Source: Austropuccinia psidii (Eukaryota > Basidiomycota > Pucciniomycetes > Pucciniales > Sphaerophragmiaceae). From it: 64,000 nt of DNA. A program made the position numbers and the translations under genes. The first letter of the stretch is position 1. The number at the start of each line of letters is the position of its first letter. Of the stretch, positions 24,460-61,634 are shown one piece after another. A model generated the notes under the pieces. That model was not told where the DNA came from. It worked only from the letters and a program-made list of their open reading frames with translations, and searched no databases. The DNA lies in assembly GCA_023105745.1 (NCBI GenBank), contig JALGQZ010000001.1, positions 54,320,937-54,384,936 on the forward strand, in the 5' to 3' direction.

Positions 24460-25220
24460 TGTAACAACCACTCACCAGGGGTAAGGGTATTCATCAATAC
24501 ACCCACTCAAACACCTCAAATCAGCAGATCCAGTATCTGCATCAGCATTCAGTTTCAGAAATCTTCATTCTGAAACATGCATACAGCTTGGTACATCAAT
24601 ACAGCCTGTCAATACCTGTACAGGCTGGATTCACCCAATACAGTTTCAATACACCAGCATCAAACTGTATGATCACTCAAATACACCACACCTCTTGTAC
24701 AGGTTCTGTACAGCTGTACAGGACCTGTATTGGCCAGACTCAATTCAATAATACAATCCTCTCATGAAAATTCTTCCTCTGGATCAGGGCTGGTGTTTCT
24801 CACATATACCAGCCCCTCTTTCTCCCCCCTGGGGACTTTTCCCCAGTTAATTAATTTAGTTTATTTATTATTTTATAATTACTCTTATCCTTATTTTGGG
24901 TATTATAATTATTTGATTTTAAGTTAGTCTTTGCATTTCTCTCTTCGCCTGTACAGTATGAGTTGGGTGGCCATATCCTTATTAACCCTTCTCTTTCCAT
25001 TCTGACAGGTTGAAACAGTGGACTTGGACTTGTTTGTGGTTGGCCGTTCTATTCTTTCATTCTTATTCTTTTGTTGCTGATTTCTTATATTCATTCTTTT
25101 AGTAATTCATCTTTAACACTCTTAAGTGTATCCTTTCTTACCATATCTTTGAGCCCTCCATAAGTGAGTCCCAGTTTACTGAGTGCCAGGCCCTCTTCAC
25201 TTCGAAGAGCCCCTATGACA
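24460..25220 (+). repeat. 5' LTR of element A
   Basis: It starts TGTAACAACCACTC and ends CCCCTATGACA (TGTGACA in sister LTRs); 761 bp. It is closely related to the LTRs at 42,996-43,739 and 59,330-60,0xx (minus). Internal landmarks are a U3 cluster of TACAG/CTGTA words (24,590-24,745), an inverted repeat around CATATACC (24,787-24,815), a CTGGGGA...TCCCCAG hairpin (24,829-24,846) and AGTTAATTAATTTA (24,845-24,858). The 5 bp on its left are ATTAT, and the 5 bp right of the presumed partner LTR are GTTAC, so no TSD is seen. Confidence 0.8.
24802..24858 (+). promoter_or_regulatory. Element A core promoter and predicted transcript start
   Basis: A TATA-like CATATACC (about 24,803-24,810) lies about 40 bp before AGTTAATTAATTTA. 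The latter is the predicted RNA 5' end because it is complementary to the sequence just inside the LTR (25,222-25,235; 13 of 14). Between them sits a perfect 7-bp hairpin CTGGGGA/TCCCCAG. The same order occurs in the B and D LTRs. Confidence 0.55.
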
Positions 25221-26335: not shown

Positions 26336-27055
26336 TGTCACAGCCAAGGAGGCAGGGGCATTACCAATCATATTCAACAATCATTACTTCATTGATACCC
26401 CTCAAAACCCAATCAGCAAGGGGCTTTCATTCAACATTCTCCAAATACAGTTTTCAGAACTCAATACAGTTTCATACAGGCAAGACCCAAATACAGGCCT
26501 GTAATCAATACAGGCACAAATACCTGTATTGCCTGTATAACCTGTATTGGATTCACCAATACAGGATTCAATCCCACATCCAGCTTCTTCCAGCATACAG
26601 ACAAGTACCTCAACACTCAAACTCCAAGGCTGGTATTTCTCACATATACCAGCCCCTCTTCACCCACCTGGGGGTTTTTCCCCCAGTTAATTAAAATATT
26701 GGATTTATTATTTAATATTATTTTATTTCTCATTAAGAAATATTATTTTATTACTTATTAAGTTAGTCTTTGCCTTCCCTCACCTGTTCAGTAGAGTCCT
26801 GGCAGCCATATCCTCTATTAATCCTTTTCTCTTTTCTGAACAGGTTGAAACAGTGGTACAGGATTATTTGTGGTTGGCTCTTTATTATTGCTTTTGTTTT
26901 CCTCTCATATCTTTTAATTCTTATTATTTTATGACTAGGAAATTATTATCTTATTTCATTACTCTTATCAATTGAGTATTTCATTCTGAGCCCTCCATAA
27001 GTAAGTCTGTTCACTGAGTGCCAGTCCCTCTTCATTTAGAAGAGCCCCTGTGACA
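26336..27055 (+). repeat. 5' LTR of element B
   Basis: It starts TGTCACAGCC and ends CCCTGTGACA; 720 bp. U3 holds about eleven TACAG/CTGTA words between 26,450 and 26,605. A 9-bp perfect inverted repeat GGCTGGTAT/ATACCAGCC (26,628-26,654) brackets the TATA-like ATATACC. A hairpin CTGGGGG-TTTTT-CCCCCAG lies at 26,668-26,686. Confidence 0.9.
26628..26698 (+). promoter_or_regulatory. Element B core promoter and predicted self-primer
   Basis: TATA-like CATATACC (26,643-26,650) is followed about 40 bp later by AGTTAATTAAAATA (26,685-26,698), the predicted 5' end of the genomic RNA. The last 14 nt are exactly complementary to 27,057-27,070 just inside the LTR. The G5/C5 hairpin lies between the two. 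Confidence 0.6.
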
Positions 27056-27831
27056 TTATTTTAATTAACTCATAATTGCTTCTTCTTTTCATTCATTTCA
27101 TTCATTTCTCTCATTCTTCAATTATGATCTTTTCATGATTTTATGATTTTTATGATTTCATTATCTCTCATCAATTTTCATCCCATTCATTTCATTCAAA
27201 TGAAAATTGATTCTCTTTCTCATTTCAAAATTTTGCTGACCATTTCATTTTCTCTTAATTCTCAATGAATTTCATTTTCATTTCCTGTCTGAATTCAGTT
27301 TTTTTATAAGGTTTAATTGATTGGAATTTGGGATTAATTGATTTATCGTTTCAGGAGTTATTGAATTGGGGTTATCATTGGTTGATTTTGAAATTTCTCA
27401 AGATTATTTATTTATTGATTGATTTCTCAAGAAATTGATTGACCTCAAGACTCTGATTTTATTTAATTGATTGATCTCATTTGATTCCTCAAGATAGCTG
27501 ATTTATCCTCAAGATTTGATTTGATTGATTGATTTGAATTTTATTCCTCAAGAAAATTGAATTGATTTTTGAAGATATTGATTGAATTCCTCAAGACTTC
27601 ATTGATTTGATTTTGAATTGACTTGATTTACTTGATTTGACTTATTGATTGAAATTGATTATTCATAAGAATTTGACTTTGTCATCTTCACTCTTCAAGA
27701 ATTATTGATATTGATTCATGTCAAGACTATTGATTGATTTCTCAATTTCATCAAGATTCTCATTTGATTGTTTTGGTCAAGCCTTATTTAATTCAAAGCT
27801 TCATCAAGTTTTTATTCATTCTTCTTTCATT
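27056..27831 (+). other. Element B 5' leader, noncoding
   Basis: A 776-nt T-rich leader. Between about 27,395 and 27,600 the word CTCAAGA occurs roughly seven times, separated by GATTGATT-type runs. Multiple upstream ATGs are present. It may contain packaging or translation signals; no direct evidence is visible. Confidence 0.55.
27057..27070 (+). other. Element B self-primer binding site
   Basis: TATTTTAATTAACT starts 2 nt inside the LTR and is a perfect 14-nt complement of AGTTAATTAAAATA in the LTR. In element A both partners differ together (ATTTA with TAAAT in place of AAAATA with TATTTT), which is covariation supporting a Tf1-like self-priming mechanism. Confidence 0.7.
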
Positions 27832-29190
27832 ATGCCAGTTCGGCATAACCCACCAGCCAAGGATACAAGATCCCAGAGACATCAAGCTGTTCTCACTCCT
27901 ACAGCAAGGGGTCCTCTTGACTGCACACCAACAGTTCATCAACTGAGTGCAAACTTGGACAGAGGACCACCAATGGAAGGAGCAGCACCCTCAAGAAGAG
28001 GAGGTGTGAAGTCAAGAAGATCAAGATCATTCTCTGGCTTGTTGGGTGGCTATTCAAGCATTCCTCAAGGGCCTAGAAGCAGATTAGGGGAAGCTGAAGA
28101 TGAAGAGGGGGAGGAGTCTGTGGAAGAGGAGGAGTCTGAAGAAACTGAAGTAGCAGCTGCCTTGGCAGGTGCCCCTGAGGCTTCTGGAGCTCCAAATCTA
28201 GCCCTTTCTAATCAACCTCTTGTCTCTCAAGCACAACCAAATTTTCTCAAAATGATGGAGCAGATGACTCAATTCATGGGTCAACTCACTCAAGCAGTTG
28301 CCCTAAGGGACACTTCAAAAGTCCCTGCATTCAAGACTCCATCAATGAAGGAACCTGATTCTTTTGATGTTACTAAAGCTCATAAATTGAGAGGATTAAT
28401 TCAATCCCGTCAATTAATATTCCATAATGACACAGCAAGCTTCTTCTCTGAAAGGAAGAAGGTCTTATACTCAACTTCTTTTCTTACTAGTAGAGCTGGC
28501 AAATGGATTGAACCCTATCTCTCAAATATCTCCAATGAAGACCCATCTTACCTTCCCAATAACTGGCAGTTATTTGAAGCCCAGTTATTCACTATGTTTG
28601 TTGATCCCAATGAAGTCAGAAAAGCTGAACAAGAGTTGGACAATTTGAGGATGAGGGGAAGTGGTCAAGCTTCCTTGTACATAGCTGATTTCAGAAGTTT
28701 AATGTCAATAATTGGAGACTGGGGGGAAAGGGCCTATATTCATGTATATAGAAGAGGCTTGGCATAAAGATTGTTGGACCAATTGGCTTCTCACCCTGGA
28801 ACCTTTGATAGTCTTCAAGAACTCATGGATATCACCTTGGAATTAGATACCAGGTACCATGAGAGGCAGAAGGAAAAGGGTAGTCATCAAGAGAAGAAGC
28901 CTCCAATCAGTGCATCCAACTCCTGAAAGCCCCCTCAAAGTTCATCATCACAGAAGCCTTATCACAAGAAGAATAAGAAGGGGAAGAATTTTCAAGTGTC
29001 CAAAGACAAACCTCATGCTGCTCTCCTCAATAAGGACAACAAATTAATTGGTTCTGAAAAGGAGAGGAGGATTAAAGAAGGCTTGTGCAATTATTGTGGT
29101 GGTAAACACCCATTTGAGAAATGCTTCAAGAGGCCTGAAAATAGGCAAGGGTCATCAAAAGGCTTCCCTAGCAAGCAGGGAAAAGCCTGA
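27832..29190 (+). pseudogene. Element B gag (two nonsense codons)
   Basis: The ATG at 27,832 opens a frame of 453 codons to TGA at 29,188-29,190, with internal stops TAA 28,765-28,767 (TCA in A) and TGA 28,924-28,926. Order: basic SRRSRSFSGLLGGY region, acidic tract, a Retrotrans_gag-like capsid segment (about residues 140-330; MEQMTQFMGQLTQA, RKAEQELDNL, GDWGERAYIHVYRR), and a Lys-rich segment. A single zinc knuckle CNYCGGKHPFEKC has C-X2-C-X3-H-X4-C spacing, one residue shorter than the usual X4 before His. Gag assembles the particle and binds genomic RNA. Pol follows by -1 frameshifting at the C-terminus. Confidence 0.85.
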
Positions 29191-29242
29191 GTGGGAATCA
29201 TGATGTGTTCAATGGTTCTCACTTATTTCCTTCAAGAGCACA
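29178..29242 (+). promoter_or_regulatory. Element B gag-pol -1 frameshift signal
   Basis: Slippery heptamer G GGA AAA at 29,178-29,184 in gag phase, then a 6-nt spacer containing the gag stop. An 11-bp stem follows, GTGGGAATCAT (29,191-29,201) with ATGGTTCTCAC (29,212-29,222). The 10-nt loop can pair TGTGTTC (29,204-29,210) with GAGCACA (29,236-29,242), giving an H-type pseudoknot with a 13-nt second loop. The pol frame is open from the slip point. Confidence 0.75.
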
Positions 29243-32200
29243 ATTGTGCACTCTGAATACTAGTGTCAAGAAATCTTTAAAATTTCTTATTTTTTCTTCA
29301 ATCTCTGATATTTTTTATAGTATTCTCATTGATTCTGGTGCTACAAAGTCCTTTATTGCAAATAATTTTGTTCTCAAGTACTCATTGACCATGTCAGAGC
29401 TCCCTGAAAAGATTCCTCTTTTCATTTTGGATTCCAATGAATCCACTTCCCTGTTCATCACCCATTATACCAAGTGGGTTGTTGATTTACCTTCCTTCCC
29501 AAGCTTTGAATGGGATTTCTTTATCATAGATTAACCCAAGGGAGAAGACCTGATATTGGGCTATGATTTTGTTTACCATTTTGATCCCATTATTGATTGG
29601 AAAAATGGATTGATCACCTATGATTCTAGTCATAAGGATTCTAGTGGTATTATTTCTTCTACTAGTAATGACTTTTCCACTGCTGTCAACAGTGTTTCTC
29701 TGGTTGGTGAACTTAATACACCTTCCCTTCCTCCTTCTGTCCATAACCCCTCCATTTTTCCCTCTCAGTCATTACTTCAATTAAGAGATGAAGTCTTCAA
29801 AGAGATAAAAGATGTTGGAGAAGATGTTGCTATATCTTCACTTCATCTCTTTCAAGGGGATATGGACCTTCCTCCTTTATCTTTTCATGCCTCCCTGGAG
29901 GAGCAGTGGGATGAGGAGGAAGAGCCAGAAGAGATTGAAACTGTGCTGAAGGTAGTCCCTCCTGTTTATCACAAATATTTGGATGTATTCTTCAAAGTGA
30001 AATCAGAGAAACTTCCTCCACACCGTGCCTGTGATCATCATATCGAGCTGGAGGGTCTTCTACCTCCAGTTGGTGTTATCTACTCTTTATCAAAGAATGA
30101 GTCAGAAACACTGTGGGCCTACATTTCAGAGAATGTAGAGAAAGGTTTCATTAGACCAAGCTCCTCTTCAACAGGAGCACCTGTCCTTTTTGTTAAGAAA
30201 AAGGGTGGAGGTCTTTGTTTGTGTATTGATTACCGCAAACTTAATGCTGTCACTTGGAAGAACAGGTATCCTGTTCCTCTAATGAATCAGCTTCTTACCG
30301 TATTCAACGGTGCTACTATCTTCTCCAAGATAGATCTGCGTGGTGCTTATAATCTCCTGAGAATTAAAGAAGGGGAGGAGCATTTAACTGCCTTTAGAAC
30401 CAAATATGGTAGTTTTGAGTATTTGGTTATGCCATTTGGCTTAACCAATGCTCCAGCTTCATTCCAAAATCTTGTGAATGATATCTTTGCAGATTATTTG
30501 GATATTTTTGTGGTAGTGTACTGAGATGATATTATGGTCTTCTCTAGCTCTTTGTATGAACATGTTGAACGTGTGGCCTCTGTTCTCCAAAGACTGAGAG
30601 ACAATAATCTGTTTGCTAAAGCCTCAAAGTGTGTATTTCATGCCGCAAGTGTGGAATACTTGGGCTATGTTATTTCAAGTGATGGCCTCAAGATGGATTC
30701 TTCAAAGGTTCAACAAATCCTCAATTGGCCTCAGCCCAAGAACATCAAGGCCCTCCTATCTTTTCTTGGATTTGCCAACTTTTATTGTCGTTTCATTAAA
30801 AACTATTCCAAAAAAATCTCTGCTTTAACTTCCCTCCTTCAAAAAGATTCTACCTTTATCTTCAATGAGGAAACCCTTAGTCACTTTCAAATACTCAAAG
30901 AAGCCTTCACCACCGCTCCTATTCTCTCTCATTTTAATCCTTCTCTACCAACTTTTTTAGAGACTGATGCTTTTGATTATGCCTTGGGTGCTGTACTGAG
31001 TCAGGTGAATGACTCAGGAAAGCATCCCATTGCATTTTATAGTCGCAAGCTCTTACCAGCTGAACTCAACTATGAAATTCATGACGAGGAACTCCTTGGC
31101 ATAGTTTGGGCTCTCAAGTGCTGGAGAGCTTTTCTCCTTTCTCTTTCTGATTCCTTTGAGTTCTTGACAGACCATTGTTCCCTTCAGTATTTTATGTCCT
31201 CTAAAGTCCTTACTGGTTGTCAAGCCCGTTGGGCTGAATTTCTATCCGAATTCCATTTTATCCTCACTTACCGCCCAGGCAGGCTGGCCACTTTACCAGA
31301 TGCCTTCTCACGTTGCGACGACGTGTACCCAGAGAGGGTGGTGGATTTCATCAGCAATAATCCTCAAAACTTTCATCAAGTTCTCAAGCAAAATGAAATT
31401 CAAGATTCAAGATTCTTTTCAATAGAAGTTGATATTTTTTCAGATGTAGTTGATCAAATTCAAAGACAAGTATGGCAAGACAAAGATTATAAGGAAATCC
31501 TCAAGAAATTAGCAAGAGGAGAATCAGTCCCAGACTATTCTCTTGAACCTCAAGCAAAATTATTATTTCTCAAAGATAGAGTAGTCATTCCAAGCAGTCA
31601 TGAAATTCAATTGGACATTCTTCAAAAGCATCATGACTCACTGTTGGCTGGCCATCCTGGCCAAGAGAAGACCCTCAAGCTCATCAAGAAGGATTTTGTT
31701 TGGGCTGGAATGAATCAAATCATCAAGGACTATGTGTCCTCATGTCAGCAATGACCAAGAAACAAGAACATTCACCATAAGAAGTTTGGGCTAATCAAGC
31801 CTCTTCAAATTCCATCTGGTCCTTGGAATTATTTATCAATGGACTTTATCACTCAACTGCCCTTGTCAAGCAACTTTGATTCAATTTTAGTAGTTGTAGA
31901 CAGATTTTCAAAAATGGCAATATTTATTCCAACTTATTCAACAATCACTGCTTTGGACTTAGCTCAAATATTCATTAATCATGTCTTTTCCAAACATGGT
32001 CTTCCAATCAGTACTGTTAGTGATAGAGGTTCATTATTTGTTTCATCATTTTGGACTCAATTGTGTCAGCAGCTCAAGATATCAAGAGATCTTTCAACTG
32101 CCTTTCACCCTGAAACAGATGGACAGACAGAGAGGGTAAATCAGATTCTAGAACAGTATCTTTGGATGTATGTCAGTTACCATCAAGATGACTGGCACAC

Positions 32201-32663
32201 CTGGCTCCCTCTGGCTGAATTTGCCTATAATAATGCAGAACATTCATCAACAAAACAGTCTCCATTTTTCACTATTTATGGAAGAAATCCCAGCTTTGAT
32301 TCAATTCACATTTCTCAAGATACACCTGCTGGAAAGTTGTCATCGAAACTCCAATCAGTACAGCAAGTTGTCAAAGAAGAACTAGAGTCAGCAATAAAGC
32401 GATTTAAGAATTATGCAGATAGAAATAGAGCAATTCCACCTGATTTCCAACCTGGGGACAAAGTATGGCTAGCTTCCAAGAACATCAAGACAACAAGACC
32501 CACCAAGAAACCTTCAGAAAGACGGTTGGGACCCTTTCAAGCTCTCAAGAATATTGGCAGCCATGCATATCACCTCAAGTTGCCTCAACAATGGAAGTCA
32601 GTTCACCCTGTCTTCCATGTGTCCTTGTTAGAACCAGTGAAGCAATCATCTATCCCAAATTGA
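29184..32663 (+). pseudogene. Element B pol: protease, RT, RNase H, integrase
   Basis: Lies in the -1 frame to gag. Protease active site DSGAT at 29,331-29,345. RT from about 30,070 with intact [10 protein letters not shown] and [13 protein letters not shown]. The catalytic YLDD has become Y-stop-DD (TGA 30,522-30,524). RNase H with TDAFDYALGAVLSQ from about 30,960. Integrase zinc region HHDSLLAGHPGQEK then SCQQ, with the last Cys lost to TGA 31,752-31,754. Integrase core D, D, E: MDFITQLP (31,839), SDRGSLF, HPETDGQTERVN. A GPF/Y module (RRLGPFQ) follows. Other stops are TAA 29,532-29,534 and TGA 32,661-32,663. Domain order is that of chromoviral Ty3/gypsy. Confidence 0.88.
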
Positions 32664-32835
32664 CACCAATTGCCACCACCTCCAGTCATAGTGGAAGAGC
32701 AAGAAGAATGGGAAGTGGCTCAGGTTCTGGACTCAAAACTCAAGAGAGGTTCGTTATGGTATTTAGTGGAGTGGAAAGGATTCAATGAAGACCCAGAAAG
32801 AACAACTTGGGAACCAGCTCCCCAGACCTTGTCAA
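32664..32835 (+). pseudogene. Element B integrase C-terminal chromodomain
   Basis: After the TGA at 32,661 the frame continues with HQLPPPPV, EEWEVAQVLDSKLKRG, WYLVEWKGF and TTWEPA, a canonical chromodomain with its aromatic cage positions (W-x-V, Y-L-V-x-W, W-E-P). In host proteins this fold binds methylated histone tails, and in chromoviruses it guides integration to heterochromatin. A 16-nt deletion at about 32,820 relative to element A shifts the frame and removes the normal C-terminus. Confidence 0.85.
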
Positions 32836-32893
32836 GGATTTTCACACTTTGTATCCAGACAAGCCTGGCCCAAATGCCTCAAGAGTTTGATTT

Positions 32894-33029
32894 ATGGTGC
32901 TTGGTGGGGATTGGAGTTTATGAAATTAAGTTCCTCTCCTGGCATGTACCTTTAAGGGGGTATTCTACCCAAATTTGTTGTAAGCATCACCTTGGCCACT
33001 TTGTGAGCGCTTGTCAATTCTTTGGACAG
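32894..33029 (+). other. Element B post-pol intron-like module, copy 1
   Basis: Follows the pol end: ATGGTGCTTGGTGGGGA, then TATGAAATTAAGTTCC (the donor-like GTAAGT of sister copies is mutated to ATTAAG), CACCTTGGCCACTTTGTGAGC, and an acceptor-like TTTGGACAG ending at 33,029. It is one of eight related modules in the window. Confidence 0.6.
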
Positions 33030-33193
33030 GTTCAGAAGGCCTTGCAACATCATACCCTCAAGATTTTGGACCTTTCATCAAGATATGGCCCAATCGTTCC
33101 TCTTATATTCTTTCCTTCCTTAATCATGCCATAAATTATCTTTCATAACATTCATTACCAAAATTCATGTTATGGCATAATTTCTTTTCATTT

Positions 33194-33326
33194 ATGATGC
33201 TTGGTGGGGAGTGGAAGTTATGAAAGTAAGTTCCATCTCCTGGTATGCATCCCTGAGGGGTCTACTTCTTGTAAAACAATACCTTGGCCACACTGTGAGC
33301 ATAAAATGCTTGATTTTATCTTTCAG
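33194..33326 (+). other. Element B post-pol intron-like module, copy 2
   Basis: ATGCTTGGTGGGGAGTGG, then TATGAAAGTAAGT. The GTAAGT at 33,226-33,231 is a consensus 5' splice site. CCTTGGCCACACTGTGAGC follows, then the acceptor-like TTTATCTTTCAG ending at 33,326. The donor-to-acceptor span is 101 nt, typical of fungal introns. Confidence 0.6.
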
Positions 33327-34585
33327 AACATTTTGGCCAAAATCAAGCAACTCACCACAAGAAGGACAACCCTCAGGCATTTTCTTATTTCTTTCTTTAC
33401 TCTCTTTTTCTCTCAATTCTTTTTCATTTTTTTTTTATTTCAGTTTCTTTTACTTGTATGTTTTATTTTTTATTTTTTATTTTTATTTCTTATTTCAAAA
33501 GCAGTAGTCATCACTCCCATATCATGTTTGGGGAGTCAATTCAATCAAGAATCAAAGAGCAAATCACTGGTAATGGTAAAGACCAGCTACAGATAACCCT
33601 CATCAAAACTTCTTCAAGTCAGCCTTAAACTCATTTCTTAAGATCAAAATTGAAAGCCAAAACCCAATCAACAAGGCATTTATGGCAATTGACCAGTCAA
33701 GGAGGAGATAAGAAGAAAGACATTCAGGAAGAAATCAAGATAAAAAAAGGAAAACCCTGCTTCAAATGGCCCAATTGGCCAATTTCATGAATTCATGCAC
33801 TTTGGCACAAATGGCCATTTCAAACCTCAAAACTTCAAAATAGCTCATTTTTATCATTTTTCATCAAAATATGCTTAATTATGCAAATTGGCAAATTTGC
33901 GCATTGTTGCGCATTTGTGCACTTTTGCGCAAAAGGCCTGTTTATCTTGTCAAAAGGCTTCAAAAGGCCTTTTTGGCCAATTTCATCATAATTGCGCATT
34001 TGCGCACTTTGTGCAAAAATGCGCAAAATGGCCAGAACACTTTATAGGGCATTTTTCCATCATTAATCAAATTTTGTCAAATTTTTCACCAATATATGCC
34101 ATTATGGCATATATGCGCATTTGCGCAAATTGGCCAAAAACCCCTTTAATCACGAAATCAAGGATTTTGGCCAGGACTTCTGAAATGGTCCAAAACCTCA
34201 AGTATTGGCCACTTTATGCCAACACTCTCAAGATTAAAGTTATGATGAAATCAGGTGTTCTTGGGACATAAACCCAGGTCACCTACTTTTCAAAAGCCAT
34301 GAGGAATCAAGAAACGTTTGGTGAAGACACTCAAGACAAGAAGGAATAAGGTTTAAGAATAATGAAGGCATTTTGAAGGAAAAGAGGGAATTCAGAATCA
34401 AGATCAAGGGGAAAATACCTACAAGTGATCAAATGAAGATTTTGTTTGAGTATTGATTGAAGAAGAACGTTTAATGGGATAAATTTAAGGAATTGGGGGA
34501 AAGAACTGTGTGGATTGTTTGCAAGCTCATCAAGACTCACTGTACTTATGGTGCTCAGAGCTCACCACTTTCAAGAGGGGGATAA
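33327..34585 (+). other. Element B 3' noncoding region with TGCGCA cluster
   Basis: No credible gene. Eight TGCGCA palindromes lie within about 33,895-34,130, striking in such CpG-poor DNA, along with many TTGGCC words. The region ends with the polypurine tract TTTCAAGAGGGGGATAA directly before the 3' LTR. Confidence 0.6.
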
Positions 34586-35321
34586 TGTCACAGCCAAAGA
34601 GGCAGGGGCATTACCAATAATATTCAACAATCATTACTTCATTGATACCCCTCAAAACCCAATCAGCAAGGGGGTTTCATTCAACATTCTCCAAATACAG
34701 TTTTCAGACCTCAATACAGTTTCATACAGGCAAGACCCAAATACAGGATTCACCAAATACAGGCCTGTAATCAATACAGGCACAAATACCTGTATTGACT
34801 GTATAAACTGTATTGGATTCACCAATACAGGATTCAATCCCACATCCAGCTTCTTCCAGCATACAGACAAGTATCTCAACACTCAAACTCCAAGGCTGGT
34901 ATTTCTCACATATACCAGCCCCTCTTCACCCACCTGGGGGTTTTTCCCCCAGTTAATTAAAATGTTGGATTTATTATTTAATATTATTTTATTTCTCATT
35001 AAGAAATATTATTTTATTACTTATTAAGTTAGTCTTTGCCTTCCCTCACCTGTTCAGTAGAGTCCTGGCGGCCATATCCTCTATTAATCCTTTTCTCTTT
35101 TCTGAACAGGTTGAAACAGTGGTACAGGATTATTTGTGGCTGGCTCTTTATTATTGCTTTTGTTTTCCTCTCATATCTTTTAATTCTTATTATTTTATGA
35201 CTAGGAAATTATTATCTTATTTCATTACTCTTATCAATTGAGTATTTCATTCTGAGCCCTCCATAAGTAAGTCTTTTCACTGTGTGCCAGGCCCTCTTCA
35301 TTTAGAAGAGCCCCTGTGACA
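34586..35321 (+). repeat. 3' LTR of element B
   Basis: 736 bp, starting TGTCACAGCC and ending CCCTGTGACA. It differs from the 5' LTR by scattered substitutions and a 16-bp tandem duplication (ATACAGGATTCACCAA type) near 34,745. It is followed by the TSD CTCAG at 35,322-35,326. Confidence 0.9.
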
Positions 35322-36331
35322 CTCAGGGTTCTAATCTAGCCCTTTCTAGTCAGCCTCTTGTCTCTAAAACTGATCCAAGTTTCCTCAAGATAATGGAGCA
35401 GATGACTCAATTCATGGGGCAACTCACTCAAGCAGTTGCTCCCAGGGACAATTACAAGGCCCCTGCTTTCAAGACTCCATCCATGAAGGCACCTCATTTT
35501 TTTGATGGTACTCAAGCTCATAAATTGAGAGGATTTATCCAATCCTGTCAATTAATCTTCCATAATTATCCAGCAAATTTCTTCTCTGACAGGAAGAAAG
35601 TTCTTTACTCAGCTTCTTTTCTCACTGGTGGAGCTGGAAAGTGGAGTGAACCCTATCTCTCAAATATTTCCAATGAAGGCCCTTCCTACCTCCTAAATAA
35701 TTGGCCATTATTTGAATCTCAATTATTCACTCTGTTTGGTGACCCCAATGAAGTCAGGAAAGCTGAACAAGAGTTGGACAATTTGATGATGAAGGAAAGT
35801 GGTCATGTATCCTTGTACATTGCAGATTTCAAAAGCTTAATGTCAAGAATTGGGGATTGGGGGGAAAGAGCTTATATCCATGTTTACAGAAGAAGATTGG
35901 CATCAAGATTATTGGATCAGTTGGCTTCTCACCCTGGAACTTTTGATACTCTTCAAGAACTTATGGATGTCACTTTAGAATTAGACACAAGATTTCATGA
36001 GAGGAAAAAAGAAAAGGGTGGCAATCAAGAGAAGAAGCCTCCAGTCAATGGATCCAATCAATATAGGCCTCCTCAAAGCTCATCTTCAAAGATGCCTCAC
36101 CAGAAGAAGAACAAGAAGGGCAAGCAGTTCCAATCTTCAAAGGACAAACCTCATGCTGCTCTCCTCAATAAGGACAATAAATTAATTGGTTCTGAAAAGG
36201 AGAGGAGGATCAAAGAGGGGTTGTGTACTTATTGTGGTGGAAAGCACCCAGTTGAAAAATGCTTCAAGAGACCTCAGAACAAGGCTGGGTCATCATCAAG
36301 AGGCTTCCCTAGCAAGCAGGGAAAAGCCTGA
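35322..36331 (+). pseudogene. Element A gag, C-terminal part
   Basis: Resumes the A gag frame at the CTCAG duplication and runs open to the TGA at 36,329-36,331. It includes the capsid segment (MEQMTQFMGQLTQA, RKAEQELDNL, GDWGERAYIHVYRRRL) and a Lys-rich stretch. The knuckle CTYCGGKHPVEKC has the same C-X2-C-X3-H-X4-C spacing as in B. Without the nested B, A gag would be one uninterrupted frame, so this gag is broken only by the insertion. Confidence 0.85.
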
Positions 36332-36382
36332 GTGGGGATCATTATGTGTTCAATGGTTCTCACTTATTTCCTTCAAGAGCAT
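36319..36382 (+). promoter_or_regulatory. Element A gag-pol -1 frameshift signal
   Basis: GGGAAAA at 36,319-36,325 in gag phase, then a 6-nt spacer. The stem is GTGGGGATCAT (36,332-36,342) with ATGGTTCTCAC (36,353-36,363): 11 pairs including three G-U. The loop GTGTTC (36,346-36,351) can pair with GAGCAT (36,377-36,382): 6 pairs, two of them G-U. The second loop is 13 nt. Geometry is identical to B and C. Confidence 0.72.
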
Positions 36383-39300
36383 TATTGTGCACTCTGAATA
36401 CTAGTGTCAAGAAATCTTTAAAATTTCTTATTTTCTCTTCTTTCTCTGATATTTTTTATAGTATTCTCATTGATTCTGGTGCTACAAAATCCTTTATTGC
36501 AAAGGATTTTGTTCTCAAGTACTCATTGACTCTGTCAGAGCTCCCTGAAAAGATTCCTCTTTTCATTCTGGATTCTAATTAATCCCCTGCCTTGTTCATC
36601 AACCATTATACCAAGTGGGTAGTTGACTTGCCTTCCTTCCCAAGCTTTCAATGGGACTTCTTTATCATAGATTAACCCAAGGGAGAAGACCTGATATTGG
36701 GCTATGATCTTCTTTGCCATTTTAATCCCATTATTGTTTGAAAAAATGGATTGATCACCTATTATTCTAGTCATAAGGATTCTATTGGTATTACTCCTTC
36801 TACTAGTAATGACTTAGCCACTGCTGTCAACAGTGTTGCTCTGGTTGGTGAACTTAAGACACCTTCCCTTCCTTCTTCTGTCTATATCCCTTCCATCATT
36901 CCCTCTCAGTCATTACTTCCATTAAGAGATGAAGTCTTCAAAGAGATAAAGGATGTTGGAGAAGATGTTGCCATATCTTTACTTCATCTCTTCCAAGGGT
37001 TTATGGACCTTCCTCTCTTATCTTTTCATGCCTCCCTGGAGGAGCAGTGGGATGAGGAGGAAGAGCCAGAAGAAACTGAAACTGTGTTGAAGGTAGTCCC
37101 TCCTGCTTATCACCAATATTTGAATGTATTCTCCAAGGTGAAAGCAGAGAAACCTCCTCCACACCACGCCTGTGATCGCCATATCGAATTGGAGGGTCTT
37201 CTACCTCCAATTGGTGTTATCCACTCCTTATCAAATAAAGAGTAAGAAACACTACGGGCCTACATTTCAGAGAATGTAGAGAAAGGTTTCATTAGACCAA
37301 GCTCTTCTTCAACAAAAGCACCTGTCCTTTTTGTTAAGAAAAAGGTTGGAGGTCTTTGTTTGTGTGTTGATTACCGCAAACTTAATTCTGTTACTAGGAA
37401 GAACAGGTACCCTGTTCCTCCTATGAACCAGCTCCTTACCATATTCAACGGTTCCACTATCTTCTCCAAGATAGCCTTGCGTGGTGCATATACCCTTCTG
37501 AGAATCAAAGAGGGGGATTAGCACTTAACTGCCTTTAGAACCAAATATGGTAGTTATGAGTATTGTGTCATGCCATTTGGTTTGACCAATGCTCCTGCTT
37601 CTTTCCAGAATCTAGTAAATGATATCTTTGCAGATTTCTTGGATGTGTTTGTTGTGGTTTATTTAGATGATATTATGGTCTTTTCCAGGTCTGAGGAGGA
37701 ACATGTCAAACATGTGGCCTCTTTCCTCCAAAGACTGAGGGACAATAATCTGTTTGCCAAAGCCTCCAAGTGTGTATTCCATGCCTCAAGTGTGGAATAC
37801 TTGGGCTATGTTGTTTCAAGTGATGGCCTCAAGATAGATTCTTCAAACGTTCAGCAAATCCTCAATTGGCCTCAGCCCAAAAACATCAAGGCCCTTCAAT
37901 TGTTTCTTGGCTTTGCCAATTTTTATTGTCGTTTAGTTAAAGATTATTCCAAAAAAATTACTTCTCTCACTTCCCTCCTTAAAAAAGATTCTCCTTTCAT
38001 CTTCAATGAGGAAGCTCTTAGTCAGTTTCAAGCACTCAAAGAAGCTTTCACCTCTGCTACTATCCTATCTCACTTTAATCCTTCTCTACCTACTATAGTA
38101 GAGACTGATGCCTCTGATTATGCTTTGGGTGCTGTACTGAGCCAGGTGAATGACTCAGGAAAGCATCCCATTGCATTTGATAGTGGCAAGCTTCTCCCAG
38201 CTGAGCTGAACTATGAAATTCATGACAAGGAACACCTTGGAATAGTTTGGGCTCAAAAGCGCTGAAGAGCATTTCTTCTCTCTCTTTCCAATTCTTTTGA
38301 GGTCTTGACAGACCACTCTTCCTTGCAGTATTTTATTTCTTCCAAAGTTCTTACTCGTCGTCAGGCCCATTGGGCTGAATTCCTTTCAGAATTTCACTTC
38401 ATTATCACTTACTTCCCAGGCAGGCTGGCCACTTTTCCAGATGCCTTGTCACGTCGGGACGACGTGTACCCAGAGAGGGGGGTGGACTTCATCAGCAAGA
38501 ATCCTCAAAATTTTCATCAAGTAATCAAGCAAGATGGAATTCAAGAGTCAAGATTCTTTTCAATCAAAGTGGAAGTGTTTTCAGATTTAGTTGACAAGAG
38601 TCAAAAAGAAGTATGGCAAGACAAAGACCATAAATAAATACTCAAGAAACTAGCAAGAGGTGAATCAATTCCATATTATTCTGTTGAACCTCAAGCCAAG
38701 TTGTCATTATTCAAATATAGAGTGGTAATCCCAAGAAATGAAGAACTTCTACTCAATATTCTTCAAAAGCATAATGACTCACCTTTTGCTTGCCATCCTG
38801 GCCAGGACAAGACCCTCAAGCTCATCAAGAGGGATTTTTATGGGGCTGGCAGGAATCAATTCATCAAGAACTATGTGTCCTCATGTCATAAATGTTCAAG
38901 AAACAAGAACATTCACCACAAGAAGTTTGGGCTACTCAAGCCTCTTCAAATTCCATCTGGTCCTTGGAATTCCTTACCAATGGACTTTATCACTCAATTG
39001 CCCTTGTCAAACAACTTTGACTCAATTCTAGTAGTTGTGGACAGGTTCTCAAAAATGGCAATCTTCATTCCAACTTATGGAACAATCACTGCTCTGGACG
39101 TAGCTCAAATCTTCATTAGTCATGTATTTTCCAAGCATGGCCTTCCAGTCAGTATTGTCAGTGATAGAGGATCTTTATTTGTTTCATCATTTTGGACTCA
39201 ATTATGTCAGCAGCTCAAGATATCAAGAGATCTTTCAACTGCTTTTCATCCTGAAACAGATGGACAGACAGAGATGTTAAATCAGATTCTAGAACAGTAT

Positions 39301-40047
39301 CTTTGGATGTATGTCAGCTATCATCAAGATGACTGGTACACCTGGCTCCCTTTGGCTGAATTTGCCTATAATAATGCAGAACAGTCATAAACAAAGCAAT
39401 CACCCTCTTTCACCATTTATGGAAGAAATCCCAGCTTTGACTCAATCCATATTTCTCAAGACTCACCTGCTGGAAAGTTGTCAACAAAACTCCAATCAGT
39501 ACAGCAAGTTTTCAAAGAAGAATTAGAGTCAGAAATAAGGAGATTCAAGAAGTATGCATATAGAAATAGGGCAATTCCACCTGATTTCCAACCTGGGGAC
39601 AAAGTATGGCTAGCTTCCAAGAACATCAAGACAACAAGACCCACCAATAAATTATCAGAAAGATTGTTGGGACCTTTTGAAGTTCTGAAGAAGATTGGCA
39701 GTCATGCATATCACCTCAAGTTGCCTCAGCAATGGAAGACAGTTCACCCTGTATTCCATGTGTCCTTATTAGAACCATTCAAGCATTCAACTATCCCAAA
39801 TCGGCATCAATTGCCGCCACCACCAGTTTTAGTGGAGAAGCAAGAAGAATGGGAAGTGGCTCAGGTTCTGGACTCAAAACTCAAAAGTGGTAAATTATGG
39901 TATCTTGTAGAGTGGAAAGGATTCAGTGAAGACCCAAAAAGAACCACTTGGGAGCCAGCTTCCAACCTTACCAACTCACCAGACCTTGTCAAGGATTTCC
40001 ATTTGTTATATCCAGACAAGCCTGGTCCAAATACCTCAAGAGTTTGA
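36325..40047 (+). pseudogene. Element A pol: protease to chromodomain
   Basis: Protease DSGAT at 36,472-36,486. RT motif A reads SKIALRGAY (37,465-37,490), so the first catalytic Asp is lost. [13 protein letters not shown] and YLDDIMVFS are intact from 37,570. RNase H has TDASDYALGAVLSQ. Integrase starts near 38,750 with HNDSPFACHPGQDK, CHKC, MDFITQLPLSNN, SDRGSLF and HPETDGQTE. The chromodomain EEWEVAQVLDSKLKSG, WYLVEWKGF, TTWEPA lies near 39,845-39,965 and ends at TGA 40,045. Stops: TAA 36,580ff, TAA 36,673-36,675, TGA about 36,739, TAA about 37,243, TAG about 37,519, TGA 38,263ff, TAA 38,635ff, TAA 39,388ff. Confidence 0.88.
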
Positions 40048-40821: not shown

Positions 40822-42056
40822 CTAGTTATCTCTACCCAAATCATCAAAAGTTCTCTGGAAGTCATTTATCAACTCATCTTAATACCAGGCAAGTTTAGCA
40901 GCCATCTCTTCAGAAGCAGTCCCTGGAATCATTCTATCATTGGCATACATGATCACCTCTCTGCTATTTTTATCAACCCTTCTGAATAATCTGGCCACAG
41001 CATCTTGATTTTCACTCTCCGCATTGGGATCTTCTCTGGTAACTCGGATAGGCCAACAATCCCTTCTTTGAAACACTTTAGCGGCAGGAAACGGTAAAGG
41101 AGACAAACCATCCCTTTTTCTACTGGAGCTGGCCTCAGGTTGGAGTTGACGAGAGGTGGGCATGGGTGAGATTCTGGAAGGTTGGACTGGTGATGGCCTT
41201 ACTTCTGGATTCAAGGCATGCCTGGCATGGGAGGTAGTTGGTGAAGGAGGAGGAATTGTGGAAGGAATGGAAGCAAGCATTGGTTGGAAGACTCTTGGGG
41301 TACTGGGAATTACTTGGCTTTGTAATCTGTTGGCAAGAGGCTTAGCAGAGGAATTTCTGGATGGATGGCCAACTGAATGAGGGACAACTTCAACTTCTTC
41401 ACCATCCAACTCATCACTCCCCTCAGCGTCTGGATCAGATGGGGAATCAGAAATTCTTCTTATCTTTTTCACTACCTTCACTACTTCATCAGTATTGGTC
41501 CTTGAGATTGGGACTTCTGATCTGTAATGTATGGGCCTACCACCAACTAGAATGGGCCCTCCAACACTAGTCCATCTTGCCACATCCCTCTGCCCCGAAC
41601 CAGTCACTACATCAAAATATCAGTACCAATTCAATCAAGACATGCAAATCACTCACATTGAGAAAATCCTGAGGTTGCATCAGGAGTAGGTTCCTGAAGA
41701 ATGGGGAATTCCTGCCCATAAGGCCCATCTTTCTTGCTCCATAAGTGCCTCCTGATGTTGGACAAAGTTGACCTGGTACGACGACATGGTTTCTCTCCAA
41801 TGAAGCAAAAGTGGCATTTTGATGATCGAGGATTGTAATGTTGAAAGCAATCCTTACCCTTGGCCAAACATTCAGTACAGGCAGGATCAAGAACTTCAAC
41901 TGCTCTGAACCCATCATAGGTTTGGGTGGGATCAAAATGACCATAAGATGCCATGGAAGGGGAGGACAATTGACTGAATACGCCAGAACAACAAAGAACA
42001 GATGGTGGCAGTGCAGAAGGAGAAGATTCAGTGAGTTCAGTCAGTTTGGAACTCAT
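40822..42056 (-). CDS. Antisense two-exon gene for a Zn(II)2Cys6 zinc-cluster protein inside element A
   Basis: Exon 1 is 42,056-41,657. A 50-nt intron (41,656-41,607) starts GTGAGT, has a branch-like TACTGAT and ends TGTAG. Exon 2 is 41,606-40,879. Joining them keeps one frame across a phase-1 junction, giving 375 codons to a TAA at 40,881-40,879. Beyond that TAA the frame stays open for 18 codons to TAG at 40,824-40,822, so the TAA may be a recent nonsense change. Residues 60-91 have six Cys (60, 63, 70, 81, 84, 91) spaced C-X2-C-X6-C-X10-C-X2-C-X6-C, the fungal binuclear zinc-cluster pattern, followed by a basic stretch (CRRTRSTLSNIRRHLW). The middle is Pro/Ser-rich and the C-terminal part charged and helical-looking. 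It runs opposite to pol, between pol and the 3' LTR. Zinc-cluster proteins are usually DNA-binding regulators; the target here is unknown. Confidence 0.72.
41607..41656 (-). other. Intron of the antisense zinc-cluster gene
   Basis: A 50-nt sequence with GTGAGT donor, TACTGAT branch-like element and TAG acceptor on the minus strand. Removing it joins two long ORFs in frame (Gln-Leu-Thr across the junction). Read on the plus strand it has no splice signals, which explains its survival through rounds of plus-strand retrotransposition. Confidence 0.75.
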
Positions 42057-42657
42057 AACTGAATAATATGCAAGCAGAAGATTCAAGATGTCAGAATCAA
42101 TCTACTCCATATCAAGAAAAAAAATTTTGACCTCAAGGAAATGGGGGCCATAACTCAATTATGCCCCCCCTCAAAGCCTCCAAGGTGAAGGTTCATACCC
42201 CTTTGGGGCTGAACCCATCACCCAGGGCCTCCCCTGAAACCTTGGGGAGGCCAGGATCTTGATGGTCCTGGACCCCATCAATGGGTCCAGGCCATGTATG
42301 GTGAAAATTGGATTTGGGCCAATTCTGGGCCCCTTGGTCACCCTGGGTCCCCAGCAAATTTGGGCCCAGGGGCTCCATTTTGGTCCTGGGGGCCTCCAAT
42401 AGCCCCCACGGACCGTGGACCATAGGACCCCAAAGACCCAAAATGCCCAATAATGGCCATAAATCATGAAATGACTAAAACTAACCAAAGCACCCAAAAG
42501 GGCCTAAAAGGCCATAAAAATCAAAAATATCTAGATTCATCAGGGAAGAGGCCACAGCCCAAAAACACCTTTGAGGGCTATTGAGGCCATTTCCATGGAC
42601 AATGGGGACAAGACTCCTTGGAGAAAATTTCTTCATGATCTAATTGGATTAATCCTT
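42057..42657 (+). other. Element A 3' noncoding region, GC-rich part
   Basis: Unusually G/C-rich for the window (42,170-42,430), with GGCCC/GGGCC-rich words. It aligns by eye with the reverse complement of 60,540-61,030 in element D. The overlapping minus-strand frames (42,171-42,497) look like composition artefacts. Confidence 0.55.
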
Positions 42658-42691
42658 GCCCAATGAGTACACTTCATATACTCATTGGGCA
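42657..42691 (+). other. Conserved 13-bp hairpin near the 3' end of element A
   Basis: GCCCAATGAGTA (42,658-42,669), loop CACTTCATA, TACTCATTGGGC (42,679-42,690), with one extra T-A pair outside. In D (60,378-60,410) the stem is GCCAGATGAGTA/TACTCATCTGGC: two base pairs changed on both sides. The loop is identical. Confidence 0.65.
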
Positions 42692-42975
42692 TCATTTTTT
42701 GAGCACAAGAGGTCAGTGGCTATTATTTTGGGATATATCCCAAGGGAAAGGTTAATTGAATCAGAAGAAAAGAAAAGCATATTTCGAAGTGGAATACTTA
42801 CTCAAAACTGGAAAGAAGGGGGAATCAATTTAATTTGACAGAGAAGAATTGAAGAAGGATTTTCAGGATAATGGTAAAGAGGAAAAAAAATTTAAAAACA
42901 AATTTTTTGAAAAAATGTGGGGATATTGAGATGCCACTCAACAGTGGCAGGATATTATGGTGTTCAGGAGCCCAC

Positions 42976-42995
42976 CAGTTTCAAGAGGGGGATAC
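42976..42995 (+). other. Element A polypurine tract
   Basis: AGTTTCAAGAGGGGGATAC ends directly before the TGTAACA start of the LTR. The equivalent tracts in B, C and D share TTTCAAGRKGGGGG. This is the expected plus-strand primer site for reverse transcription. Confidence 0.75.
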
Positions 42996-43739
42996 TGTAA
43001 CAACCATCGATCAGGGGTAAGGGTATTCATTCATATACCAACTCAAACACCTCAAAATCAGAAGATCCACTGTTTCAGCAATCTTCATTCTGAAACAAGC
43101 ATACAGTTTGGTACATTAATACAGCCTGTCAATACCTGTACAGGTTGGATTCACCCAATACAGTTTCAATACACCAGCATCAAACTGTATGATCACTCAA
43201 ATACACCACACCTCTTGTACAGGCTCTGTACAGCTGTACAGGACCTGTATTGGCCAGACTCAATTCAATAATTCAATCCTCTCATGAAAATTCTTCCTCT
43301 GGACCAGGGCTGGTGTTTCTCACATATACCAGCCCCTCTTTCTCCCCCCTGGGGACTTTTCCCCAGTTAATTAATTTAGTTTATTTATTATTTTATAATT
43401 TGTCTTATCCTTATTTTGGGTATTATAATTAGTTGATTTTAAGTTAGTCTTTGCATTTCTCTCTTTGCCTTTACAGTATGAGTTGGGTGGCCATATCCTT
43501 ATTAACCCTTCTCTTTCCATTCTGACAGGTTGAAACAGTGGACTTGGACTTGTTTGTGGCTGGCTCTTCTATTTCTTACTATTATTTTCTGTTGCTGCTT
43601 TTCTCCTATCTTTTATTATAGTAATACATTCCTTACACTCTTAAGTGTATTCAATCCTTCCATATCCTTGAGCCCTCCATAAGCAAGTCCCAGTTTACTG
43701 AGTGCCAGGCCCTCTTCACTTCAAAGAGCCCCTGTGACA
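42996..43739 (+). repeat. 3' LTR of element A (chimeric junction with C)
   Basis: 744 bp, starting TGTAACAACCATCG and ending CCCTGTGACA. It carries the same U3 TACAG/CTGTA cluster, inverted repeat, CTGGGGA hairpin and AGTTAATTAATTTA as the 5' LTR. It is followed without a gap by the middle of element C gag, and the flanking 5 bp do not match those of the 5' LTR. Confidence 0.8.
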
Positions 43740-59329: not shown

Positions 59330-60080
59330 TGTCACAGGGGCTCTTCTAAGTGAAGAGGGCCTGGCACTCAGTAAACTGGGACTCACTTATGGAGGGCTCA
59401 AGGATATGGTAAGAAGGAATACACTTAAGAGTGTTAAAGATGAATTGCTAAAGAATAAATATAAGAAAAGCATCAACAAAGAAATAAGAGTAAGAAATAG
59501 AAGAGCCAACCACAAACAAGTCCAAGTCCACTGTTTCAACCTGTCAGAATGGAAAGAGAAGGGTTAATAAGGATATGGCCACCCAACTCATACTGTACAG
59601 GCGAAGAAAGAAAAACGCAAAGACTAACTTAAAATTAAATAATTATAATACCCAAATATAAGGATAAGAATAATTATAAAATAATAAATATACTAAATTA
59701 ATTAACTGGGGAAAAATCCCCAGGGGGAGAAAGAGGGGCTGGTATAAGTGAGAACCACCAGCCCTGATCCAGAGGAAGAATTTTCATGAGAATAATTGAT
59801 GATTGAATTGAGTCTGGCCAATACAGGTCTTGTACAGCTGTACAAGAGGTGTGGTGTATTTGAGTGATCATACAGTTTCATACTGGTGTATTGAAAACTG
59901 TATTGGGTGAATCCAACCTGTACAGGTATTGACAGGCTGTATTGATGTACCAAACTGTATGCATGTTTCAGAATGAAGATTGCTGAAACTGAATGCTGAT
60001 TCAGATACTGGATTTGCTTATTTGAGGTGTTTGAGTGGTTGTATGAATGAATACCCTTACCCCTGATGGATGGTTGTTAC
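59330..60080 (-). repeat. 3' LTR of element D (minus strand)
   Basis: On the plus strand it begins TGTCACAGGGG and ends near GGTTGTTACA. On the minus strand this is TGTAACAACC...CCCCTGTGACA, matching element A. It contains the TACAG/CTGTA cluster, the GGGCTGGT/ACCAGCCC pair around TATACC, a CTGGGGA/TCCCCAG hairpin and the self-primer AGTTAATTAATTTA (59,694-59,707 reversed). Confidence 0.85.
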
Positions 60081-60377
60081 AGTATCCCCCTCTTGAAACT
60101 GGTGGGCTCCTGAACACCATAATACCCTGCCATTGTTGAGTGGCATCTCACTACCCCACACACTTCTTCGAAAAGTTTTCCTTTGACCATTATTTTGAAA
60201 TCCTTCTCCAACTCTTCCCTGTCAATTAAATTTATCCCCCCCTTCTTTAACTTTGAGTAAATACCCCACTTTGAACTGTGTCTTTTCTTCTGATTTCAAC
60301 AACTGACGTCCTTGGGGCGTGGCCTTGGGTTGTATCCCAAAATGATGGCCACTGAGCTCTTGTGCTCAAAAAATGGT

Positions 60378-60410
60378 GCCAGATGAGTATATGAAGTGTA
60401 CTCATCTGGC
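60378..60410 (-). other. Conserved hairpin in element D
   Basis: Perfect 12-bp stem GCCAGATGAGTA/TACTCATCTGGC with a 9-nt loop, at the position equivalent to 42,658-42,690 in A. Two stem pairs are changed on both sides relative to A. Confidence 0.65.
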
Positions 60411-61283: not shown

Positions 61284-61385
61284 CTGAGAAATGAAAACCA
61301 AGCATTTTATGCTCACAGAGTGGCCAAGGTAATGTTTTACAAGAAGTAGAACCCTCAGGGATGCATACCAGGAGATGGAACTTAC
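61284..61385 (-). other. Element D post-pol intron-like module, copy 2
   Basis: On the minus strand, donor-like GTAAGT (61,385-61,380), CCTTGGCCACTCTGTGAGC, acceptor-like TTTCATTTCTCAG ending at 61,284; span 102 nt. Confidence 0.6.
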
Positions 61386-61634
61386 TTTCATAACTTCCAC
61401 TCCCCACCAAGCACCATAAAATTGAAAGAATTGCCATAAATGGCTTCTGAAACGAATTTCCATAAATGCCTTCTGAGATTCATTGCCATAAATTATTTGA
61501 AGTAACGAATGTCTTGAATTATGATGATTGGCATAAATGAAATGATAGATAAAAGGAAAAGAAAGAAAGAAAACATTTGGCCATATCTTGATAAGGTCCA
61601 AATGGAGGGTATTGATGTTGTATGCTTCCTAAAC

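What the first reader, a model, noticed from the sequence alone, without database searches (positions are those of the whole stretch)
40822..42056. Antisense, intron-containing Zn2Cys6 zinc-cluster gene carried between pol and the 3' LTR of element A
Seen in sequence: two long minus-strand ORFs join in frame across a 50-nt GTGAGT...TAG intron with a TACTGAT branch-like site. The product has a C-X2-C-X6-C-X10-C-X2-C-X6-C cluster. Established knowledge: this Cys pattern defines the fungal binuclear zinc-cluster family, mostly DNA-binding regulators. Antisense extra ORFs between pol and LTR are described for some plant Ty3/gypsy elements. Inference: the element transports, or is regulated by, its own antisense transcription factor. 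Antisense placement explains why the intron survived retrotransposition.
Basis: partly seen in the sequence, partly recalled or inferred. Interest (0 to 1): 0.9.

Follow-up and report, generated by a model that had tools for sequence, protein, structure and literature searches.

The report
Retrotransposon's spliced antisense zinc-cluster gene
A very abundant jumping gene of the myrtle rust fungus carries, back to front, an extra intron-containing gene for a zinc-cluster-like protein; its copies show that the protein has been kept by natural selection, and a short CGG repeat beside it may be where the protein binds.

Summary
The gene is real and more than a chance capture. The host is the myrtle rust Austropuccinia psidii (listed protein hits; a 1.015-Gb assembly). 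In 20 of 20 copies fetched with flanks, the gene lies antisense on the 3' side of pol in a chromodomain Ty3/gypsy element; 18 of the 20 still show the 3' LTR. The intron keeps GT..AG in 40 of 40 close copies and 17 of 20 divergent ones. Pairwise dN/dS falls from 0.86 between near-identical copies to 0.24 between distant ones, as for pol. The six-cysteine region is most constrained (0.13); wrong frames give 1.2. So selection kept the protein while the element multiplied; single copies then decay. The window copy is one of these, with an in-frame stop 18 codons before the usual end. The cysteine spacing fits fungal Zn2Cys6 clusters, but no Pfam, PDB or fold match was found. New here: about 350 bp upstream of the ATG lies an array of 2-8 CGG-headed 7-bp units, rich in CpG in an otherwise CpG-starved element, a candidate binding site. 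A gene-less sublineage has also multiplied, so the gene is not needed in cis. Transcription, splicing and DNA binding are untested.

The parts
24460..25220 (+). 5' LTR of element A (TGTAAC...TATGACA)
   Evidence: 90.8% identical to the 3' LTR; ends read from the printed sequence
26336..35321 (+). Element B, nested in the gag of element A, flanked by the 5-bp duplication CTCAG (26331-26335 and 35322-35326); LTRs 26336-27055 and 34586-35321; no antisense zinc gene
   Evidence: 13 of 720 LTR bases differ; tblastn of the gene gives no significant match there
35333..40047 (+). gag and pol of element A in several pieces (capsid, RT, RNase H, integrase, chromodomain)
   Evidence: ORFs; Pfam: Ty3_capsid, RVT_1, RT_RNaseH, Integrase_H2C2, rve, SH3_Tf2-1, Chromo
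40822..42056 (-). Antisense zinc-cluster gene, from ATG to the family's usual stop
41657..42056 (-). Exon 1, with the six-cysteine cluster (residues 60-91)
41607..41656 (-). 50-nt intron GTGAGT..TACTGATA..TAG
40825..41606 (-). Exon 2; in-frame TAA of this copy at 40881-40879, family stop TAG at 40824-40822
42057..42995 (+). Noncoding stretch between the gene's ATG and the 3' LTR; upstream region of the antisense gene; purine tract before the LTR
42409..42422 (+). CGG-headed heptad array (two units in this copy: CGGACCG TGGACCA); 2-8 units in relatives
42996..43739 (+). 3' LTR of element A
59330..64000 (-). Element D (runs off the window): relative with pol 92% and LTR 92.5% identical to A, gene deleted (junction near 61060), CGG array kept (about 60749-60776)

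Best explanation
SHOWN: a large Ty3/gypsy chromovirus family of A. psidii encodes an accessory protein from an antisense, intron-containing gene between pol and the 3' LTR. Selection preserved the protein, above all its six-cysteine region and its C-terminal part (predicted helical), through the spread of the family, and single copies decay nearly neutrally after insertion. INFERRED: the gene has its own promoter upstream of its ATG (the stretch toward the 3' LTR). The spliced mRNA makes a nuclear zinc-cluster protein that binds CGG triplets. Its site is the CGG-headed heptad array about 350 bp upstream of its ATG and about 570 bp from the 3' LTR. There it would set its own level and the balance between antisense and sense transcription, acting in trans on other copies, gene-less ones included. 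The intron survives because only the sense genomic RNA is reverse transcribed, and there the intron is not a splicing substrate.
For: Position and strand: 20 of 20 flanked copies have the gene antisense, with integrase/chromodomain on one side and the element's 3' flank on the other; 18 of 20 show the 3' LTR in the expected orientation. A copy whose protein is 61% identical has the same layout. In another isolate (MF-1), 4 gene/pol pairs have neighbouring locus tags on contigs of equal length, against a mean of 0.37 and a maximum of 3 in 852 shifted controls. Selection: dN/dS 0.856 at dS < 0.06 (96 pairs) falling to 0.244 at dS 0.6-1.2 (139 pairs), 59 copies. Same trend in pol of the flanked copies. 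Shifted frames 1.19-1.20, noncoding flank 0.66-1.02. Cluster codons 41-95: 0.134 (bootstrap 0.071-0.215); codons 311-394: 0.178; linker 201-310: 0.454. Splicing signals: donor, branch and acceptor change less (p 0.133) than the intron middle (0.394) in the most distant pairs. CGG array: 98 of 127 CGG/CCG triplets in 23 flanks lie 200-399 bp from the ATG; CpG observed/expected 1.257 in the array, 0.054 in the flank, 0.034 in the LTR (22 sequences); four CGG at 7-bp spacing match 3753 times in the genome, overlaps counted, against 20 for the reversed pattern. Zn2Cys6 proteins typically bind pairs of CGG triplets (PMC5559640, passages).
Against: No Pfam match for P0001, P0002, P0007 and exon 2 and none to Zn_clus in 58 relatives. 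hhalign against Gal4 gave probability 2.3. AlphaFold2 models are poor (mean pLDDT 46.9 and 45.5), with no fold match at E <= 0.001. Of the first 20 arrays listed, 8 lie in another repeat, probably another LTR element, without the gene on the searched side (both sides in 2 of the 8), so the array is not exclusive to it. A gene-less lineage has multiplied: 39 of 39 other scored places align across the deletion junction. Close MF-1 relatives often lose cluster cysteines, and the Cys columns are no more conserved than average among them. In the noncoding control too the ratio falls somewhat with divergence (e.g. 0.742 to 0.601), though never near the gene's values. No RNA or binding data.
Confidence: 0.55

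Rival explanations
1. The protein is a selected accessory factor but no DNA-binding regulator: its cysteine knuckle binds RNA or a partner protein (packaging, nuclear import, escape from silencing), and the CGG array has another role.
For: No profile, PDB or fold match to Zn2Cys6 proteins. The basic tract after the cluster and a C-terminus predicted helical at low confidence would suit either role. The array occurs without the gene in another repeat family.
Against: Six-Cys spacing as in fungal zinc clusters, with a Lys before the fourth Cys as in Gal4. CGG triplets, the usual target, are concentrated in the gene's own upstream region.
Confidence: 0.28
2. Antisense transcription itself is the function (dsRNA or small RNA control of the element); the ORF is incidental.
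For: Antisense transcripts of LTR elements can feed small-RNA silencing, as discussed in PMC7264820.
Against: dN/dS 0.26-0.28 in the true frame against 1.2 in the other two; strongest constraint on the cluster codons. RNA function does not predict this.
Confidence: 0.05
3. Chance capture of a host gene in one or a few copies, without selection.
For: Related elements without the gene exist (none found in B and C, deleted in D).
Against: Thousands of first-look candidates (3122 DNA, 9230 protein), same place in 20 of 20, purifying selection. No longer host-like protein with exon 1 found: among 105 candidates (414-1316 aa by the tool's length rule) the only 4 hits are MF-1 proteins that run on into the element's flank.
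Confidence: 0.02
4. The CGG heptad array is a plain minisatellite that grows by slippage during reverse transcription and binds nothing.
For: Lengths step by exactly 7 bp (21 of 22); hypervariable; shared by two repeat families.
Against: CpG observed/expected 23-37 times that of flank and LTR; CGG in one phase (52 of 54); 87 triplets in the arrays against 53 in shuffled arrays; kept at large divergence (L069).
Confidence: 0.3

Closest known systems
Antisense additional ORFs between pol and 3' LTR (aORF-3R) of plant Ty3/gypsy elements: Grande gene23, RIRE2, Retand ORF4/TRP28 (PMC7264820, two of three parts read; PMC11963269, passages)
   Same: Place, strand, presence in many copies, conservation like pol, proposed nuclear or DNA-binding role.
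   Different: Fungal host; no shared domain named; a conserved spliceosomal intron (the word intron occurs 0 times in PMC11963269); a candidate target array upstream; dN/dS measured here against pol.
Boty/BcGypsy1 antisense gene brtn of Botrytis cinerea (seen only as cited in PMC7264820 and PMC8365987)
   Same: Antisense additional gene in a fungal LTR element.
   Different: Another fungal phylum (recalled); brtn's sequence was not compared here, so homology is untested.
Fungal Zn2Cys6 zinc-cluster regulators (Gal4 type; PMC5559640, passages; PDB list)
   Same: Six-Cys spacing, cluster toward the N-terminus, helical part elsewhere, CGG triplets in the presumed target.
   Different: No profile or fold match; loop of 10 residues between third and fourth Cys; predicted helical part at the far C-terminus, not next to the cluster.
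HTLV-1 HBZ, antisense-encoded retroviral regulator (PMC11963269, passage; its splicing and bZIP nature are recalled)
   Same: Antisense gene of a retroelement whose product acts in the nucleus.
   Different: Promoter in the 3' LTR (PMC7264820, for HTLV); other protein class; no homology claimed or tested.

Membership tests
Antisense aORF-3R accessory genes of Ty3/gypsy elements | Lies between pol and the 3' LTR | tested here: met
   pol and 3' flank on the expected sides in 20 of 20, 3' LTR still seen in 18 of 20; one divergent copy
Antisense aORF-3R accessory genes of Ty3/gypsy elements | Antisense to gag-pol | tested here: met
   20 of 20
Antisense aORF-3R accessory genes of Ty3/gypsy elements | Present in most copies of the element | tested here: inconclusive
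   Copies were found by the gene; gene-less lineages exist, and the share was not counted
Antisense aORF-3R accessory genes of Ty3/gypsy elements | Conserved like gag/pol proteins | tested here: met
   Gene 0.826 falling to 0.273; RT-RH 0.833 to 0.207; IN 1.06 to 0.285
Antisense aORF-3R accessory genes of Ty3/gypsy elements | Antisense transcription from its own promoter | not testable with these tools
   No RNA data
Fungal Zn2Cys6 family (PF00172) | Six Cys as CX2CX6CX(5-12)CX2CX(6-8)C (range recalled) | tested here: met
   each Cys kept in 53-57 of 59 copies
Fungal Zn2Cys6 family (PF00172) | Match to the Pfam profile | tested here: not met
   0 families for P0001, P0002, P0007 and exon 2; Zn_clus in 0 of 58 relatives at E <= 1
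Fungal Zn2Cys6 family (PF00172) | Two-helix binuclear zinc fold | tested here: inconclusive
   Low-confidence models, no fold match
Fungal Zn2Cys6 family (PF00172) | Binds CGG triplets | not testable with these tools
   Only a candidate array
Ty3/gypsy chromovirus (the carrier element) | Order RT, RNase H, integrase, chromodomain; LTRs; 5-bp duplication | tested here: met
   domains; LTRs; 5-bp duplication seen for nested element B, not for A

The most novel reading that the evidence does not exclude
A retrotransposon family runs its own transcription-factor circuit: a spliced antisense gene makes a CGG-binding zinc-cluster protein that acts on a CGG heptad array beside it. Because the protein acts in trans, gene-less copies of the family and a second repeat family that carries the same array (probably another LTR element) live off it: a regulon made of transposons.
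Probability: 0.3. Interest if true: 0.92.

Novelty: new variant of a known kind. Interest (0 to 1): 0.78.

Why it matters
What antisense extra genes of LTR retrotransposons do is an open question (PMC7264820: functions not known). Here one is shown by codon statistics to be a selected, intron-bearing protein gene, with a nearby repeat as a concrete candidate target. The question whether these genes are self-encoded regulators becomes a binding assay. If true, it would bear on how elements of this kind filled a 1-Gb fungal genome and on trans-acting control shared between element families.

Tried and rejected
Zn2Cys6 by profile: Pfam on window and relatives, PDB sequences, hhalign with Gal4, Foldseek: nothing usable. 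Two AlphaFold2 jobs: low confidence, not relied on.

Selection from proteins alone: Cys columns looked no better kept than others. The likely reason is that most of that tree is terminal branch (13.3 against 2.0), i.e. decayed copies. DNA copies changed the picture. I report both.

Other DNA sources: IMG/VR and prokaryote contigs gave no relative.

RNA hairpin in the array: mean z -0.26 over 20 sequences, not supported. The idea that the array belongs only to gene-bearing elements: rejected, 8 of 20 lie elsewhere.

Dropped rows: L025 from all dN/dS work on the gene (9 frameshift indels, 15 stops); 7 of 121 proteins from the tree; L020 from the array tally (no anchors); copies with less than 85% of a pol piece from the pol yardstick (16, 17 and 19 of 21 sequences used). 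PF00172 in the host genome did not complete. P0106 was asked once and not repeated.

Full report
1. The observation. The two minus-strand ORFs join in frame across a 50-nt GTGAGT..TAG intron (41656-41607), giving 375 codons up to a TAA at 40881-40879. So this copy is slightly truncated, and copies that run on exist. The six cysteines sit at residues 60, 63, 70, 81, 84 and 91.

2. Host. The 120 listed hits of 725 are all A. psidii MF-1 proteins, up to 86% identical over the full length; the other 605 are not shown, so other species are not excluded. The window lies in an assembly of 1,015,390,075 bases. A. psidii is described as just over 1 Gb, GC 33.8%, over 90% transposable elements, predominantly Gypsy (PMC8063080, passages). 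'Zinc' and 'antisense' occur 0 times in that main text.

3. The carrier. Element A has LTRs at 24460-25220 and 42996-43739. Its gag was split by a younger element B (26336-35321) with a perfect 5-bp duplication. LTR pairs differ by 62 of 742 bases in A and 13 of 720 in B. Pol has the domains of a chromodomain Ty3/gypsy element. Gag-pol of A is broken into several reading frames, so A itself looks dead. No trace of the gene was found in B and C. D, on the other strand, has A-like pol (7.9% different) and LTR (7.5%) but a much more different 3' internal flank (27.7%) and has lost the gene.

4. It is the element's gene. I fetched 20 copies with about 10 kb around each (the 20 best-ranked of the 39 other places scored). 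In 20 of 20 the gene is antisense, with integrase/chromodomain sequence on its 3' side and the element's 3' flank on its 5' side. The 3' LTR follows in the expected orientation in 18 of 20 (626-771 nt); L027 shows none, and L020 only an 82-nt match the other way round, its flank ending early. A copy from a divergent subfamily (protein 61% identical) has chromodomain and LTR on the same sides. In MF-1, four gene/pol pairs have consecutive locus tags and equal contig length; shifting one list gave a mean of 0.37 and a maximum of 3 (852 shifts). Both lists were the 120 best only. A fifth pair of equal contig length is 13 tags apart and is not counted. Five MF-1 proteins (P0006, P0016, P0045, P0076, P0080) have N-terminal extensions that match the translated element flank.

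5. The intron. GT..AG and the 50-nt length without indels in 40 of 40 close copies, window included. In the 20 divergent copies, read by eye, 17 keep both ends; two have a broken donor (L048, L058) and one lost the 5' half (L052). At dS 0.6-1.2 the middle of the intron differs at 39% of sites and the splice signals at 13%. This is how a used intron evolves. That it survives inside a retrotransposon follows from its being antisense: the sense RNA that is copied does not present it (inference from the known replication cycle).

6. Selection. Codon comparisons of 59 copies (window, 38 close, 20 divergent; L025 dropped) give dN/dS 0.856, 0.557, 0.354, 0.259, 0.273, 0.255 and 0.244 with rising dS (1711 pairs). 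Near-identical copies evolve almost neutrally; depth shows constraint. Pol of the flanked copies (16-19 of 21 sequences, those with enough of each piece) behaves alike: RT-RNase H 0.833 to 0.207, integrase 1.06 to 0.285, integrase C-terminus 0.867 to 0.293; the gene in 20 of these 21 goes from 0.826 to 0.273. Controls: gene in the two wrong frames 1.197 and 1.194; noncoding flank read in six frames 0.662-1.017, itself falling a little with divergence. By region in the 20 divergent copies: cluster 41-95 0.134 (0.071-0.215), C-terminus 311-394 0.178 (0.127-0.261), linker 201-310 0.454 (0.336-0.622). Pairs are not independent and close copies were picked by exon 1 similarity, which lowers exon 1 distances; the divergent set was picked from places where both exons were listed, found by similarity to P0119. 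Each cluster cysteine is kept in 53-57 of 59 copies. Of 39 fetched close copies, 15 have frameshifts relative to the window and 6 have neither frameshift nor early stop.

7. Against a strong reading. Among MF-1 proteins the cysteines are lost as often as other residues, mostly to Phe, which I take as decay of single copies. No profile or fold links the protein to PF00172. I therefore say it looks and may work like a zinc-cluster regulator and do not file it as a member.

8. The CGG array. In the 0.94-kb stretch between gene and 3' LTR, between fixed anchor words, lies an array of 7-bp units, commonest CGGACCG and CGGACCA, in 2-8 copies. Length is a multiple of 7 in 21 of 22 sequences (in D a leading base taken in by the anchor search breaks it). 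98 of 127 CGG/CCG triplets of 23 flanks fall in the 200 bp that hold it. CpG observed/expected: array 1.257, rest of flank 0.054, LTR 0.034. In the whole window CGG/CCG is rare (86 against about 630 expected from composition), and the only cluster of three within 40 bp is the array of D. Genome-wide, CGGN4CGGN4CGGN4CGG matches 1872+1881 times, overlapping matches counted, against 8+12 for the reversed pattern. Of the first 20 distinct arrays listed, 10 have exon 1 on the expected side and strand, 2 are gene-deleted copies, and 8 sit in a different repeat that shares a 50-55-bp match with window 49019-49073 and is probably another LTR element; on the other side of two of those 8, no gene was found. 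Zn2Cys6 proteins typically bind paired CGG triplets in inverted, direct or everted order (PMC5559640, passages). Hence the proposal that the array is the protein's site; it is circumstantial.

9. Gene-less lineages. D keeps about 26 bp of the ORF's 3' end and resumes upstream of the ATG; L079 and L089 keep about 56 bp of it and resume at the ATG region, where the word AACTCAT occurs at both ends in A (40871 and 42050), so a jump between short repeats is likely. The gene was thus lost, not yet to come. A 251-bp query across D's junction found 736 first-look candidates; of 40 scored, one is D itself and the 39 others all align across the junction at 82-96%. Elements without the gene have multiplied, so it is dispensable in cis; supply in trans is one reading.

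10. Novelty. Antisense extra genes in this place are known in plants and in Botrytis (PMC7264820, PMC11963269, PMC8365987). I found no description of this gene, of a zinc-cluster protein in that place, or of a conserved intron in one, in the listings of searches of an open-access library; the listings were capped and subscription papers are mostly not held. I rate it a new variant of a known kind.

Noticed in passing
window 60749-60776 and G000:C1 loci L070-L072, L074, L076, L078, L084, L088: The same CGG heptad array sits in a second repeat family, probably another LTR element, without the zinc gene on the searched side (8 of the first 20 arrays).
   Followed up: partly
window 59330-64000 (element D); G000 places: A gene-less sublineage with a shared deletion junction has multiplied (39 of 39 other scored places, of 736 candidates).
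   Followed up: partly
G000:C2 52.68, 52.86, 53.03, 53.21 Mb; G000:C13 37656579, 37684924, 37713273: Copies with equal or nearly equal scores at regular spacing (about 174-176 kb and 28.3 kb), suggesting large tandem duplications or an assembly repeat.
   Followed up: no
window 37821-40185 (A lineage) and MF-1 relatives: Private changes of element A are rich in G>T and C>A (20 of 57) against C>T and G>A (10 of 57), and lost cysteines mostly become Phe: an unusual decay spectrum.
   Followed up: partly
window 24455-24460 and 43739-43745: Element A's LTRs have no matching target duplication, and the 3' LTR runs straight into the gag of element C: recombination or loss.
   Followed up: no
window 26336-35321: Element B shares 87.6% identical gag-pol with A but LTRs only about 75% identical and a 3' internal region of which only the first 300 bases match: modular exchange between elements.
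   Followed up: no
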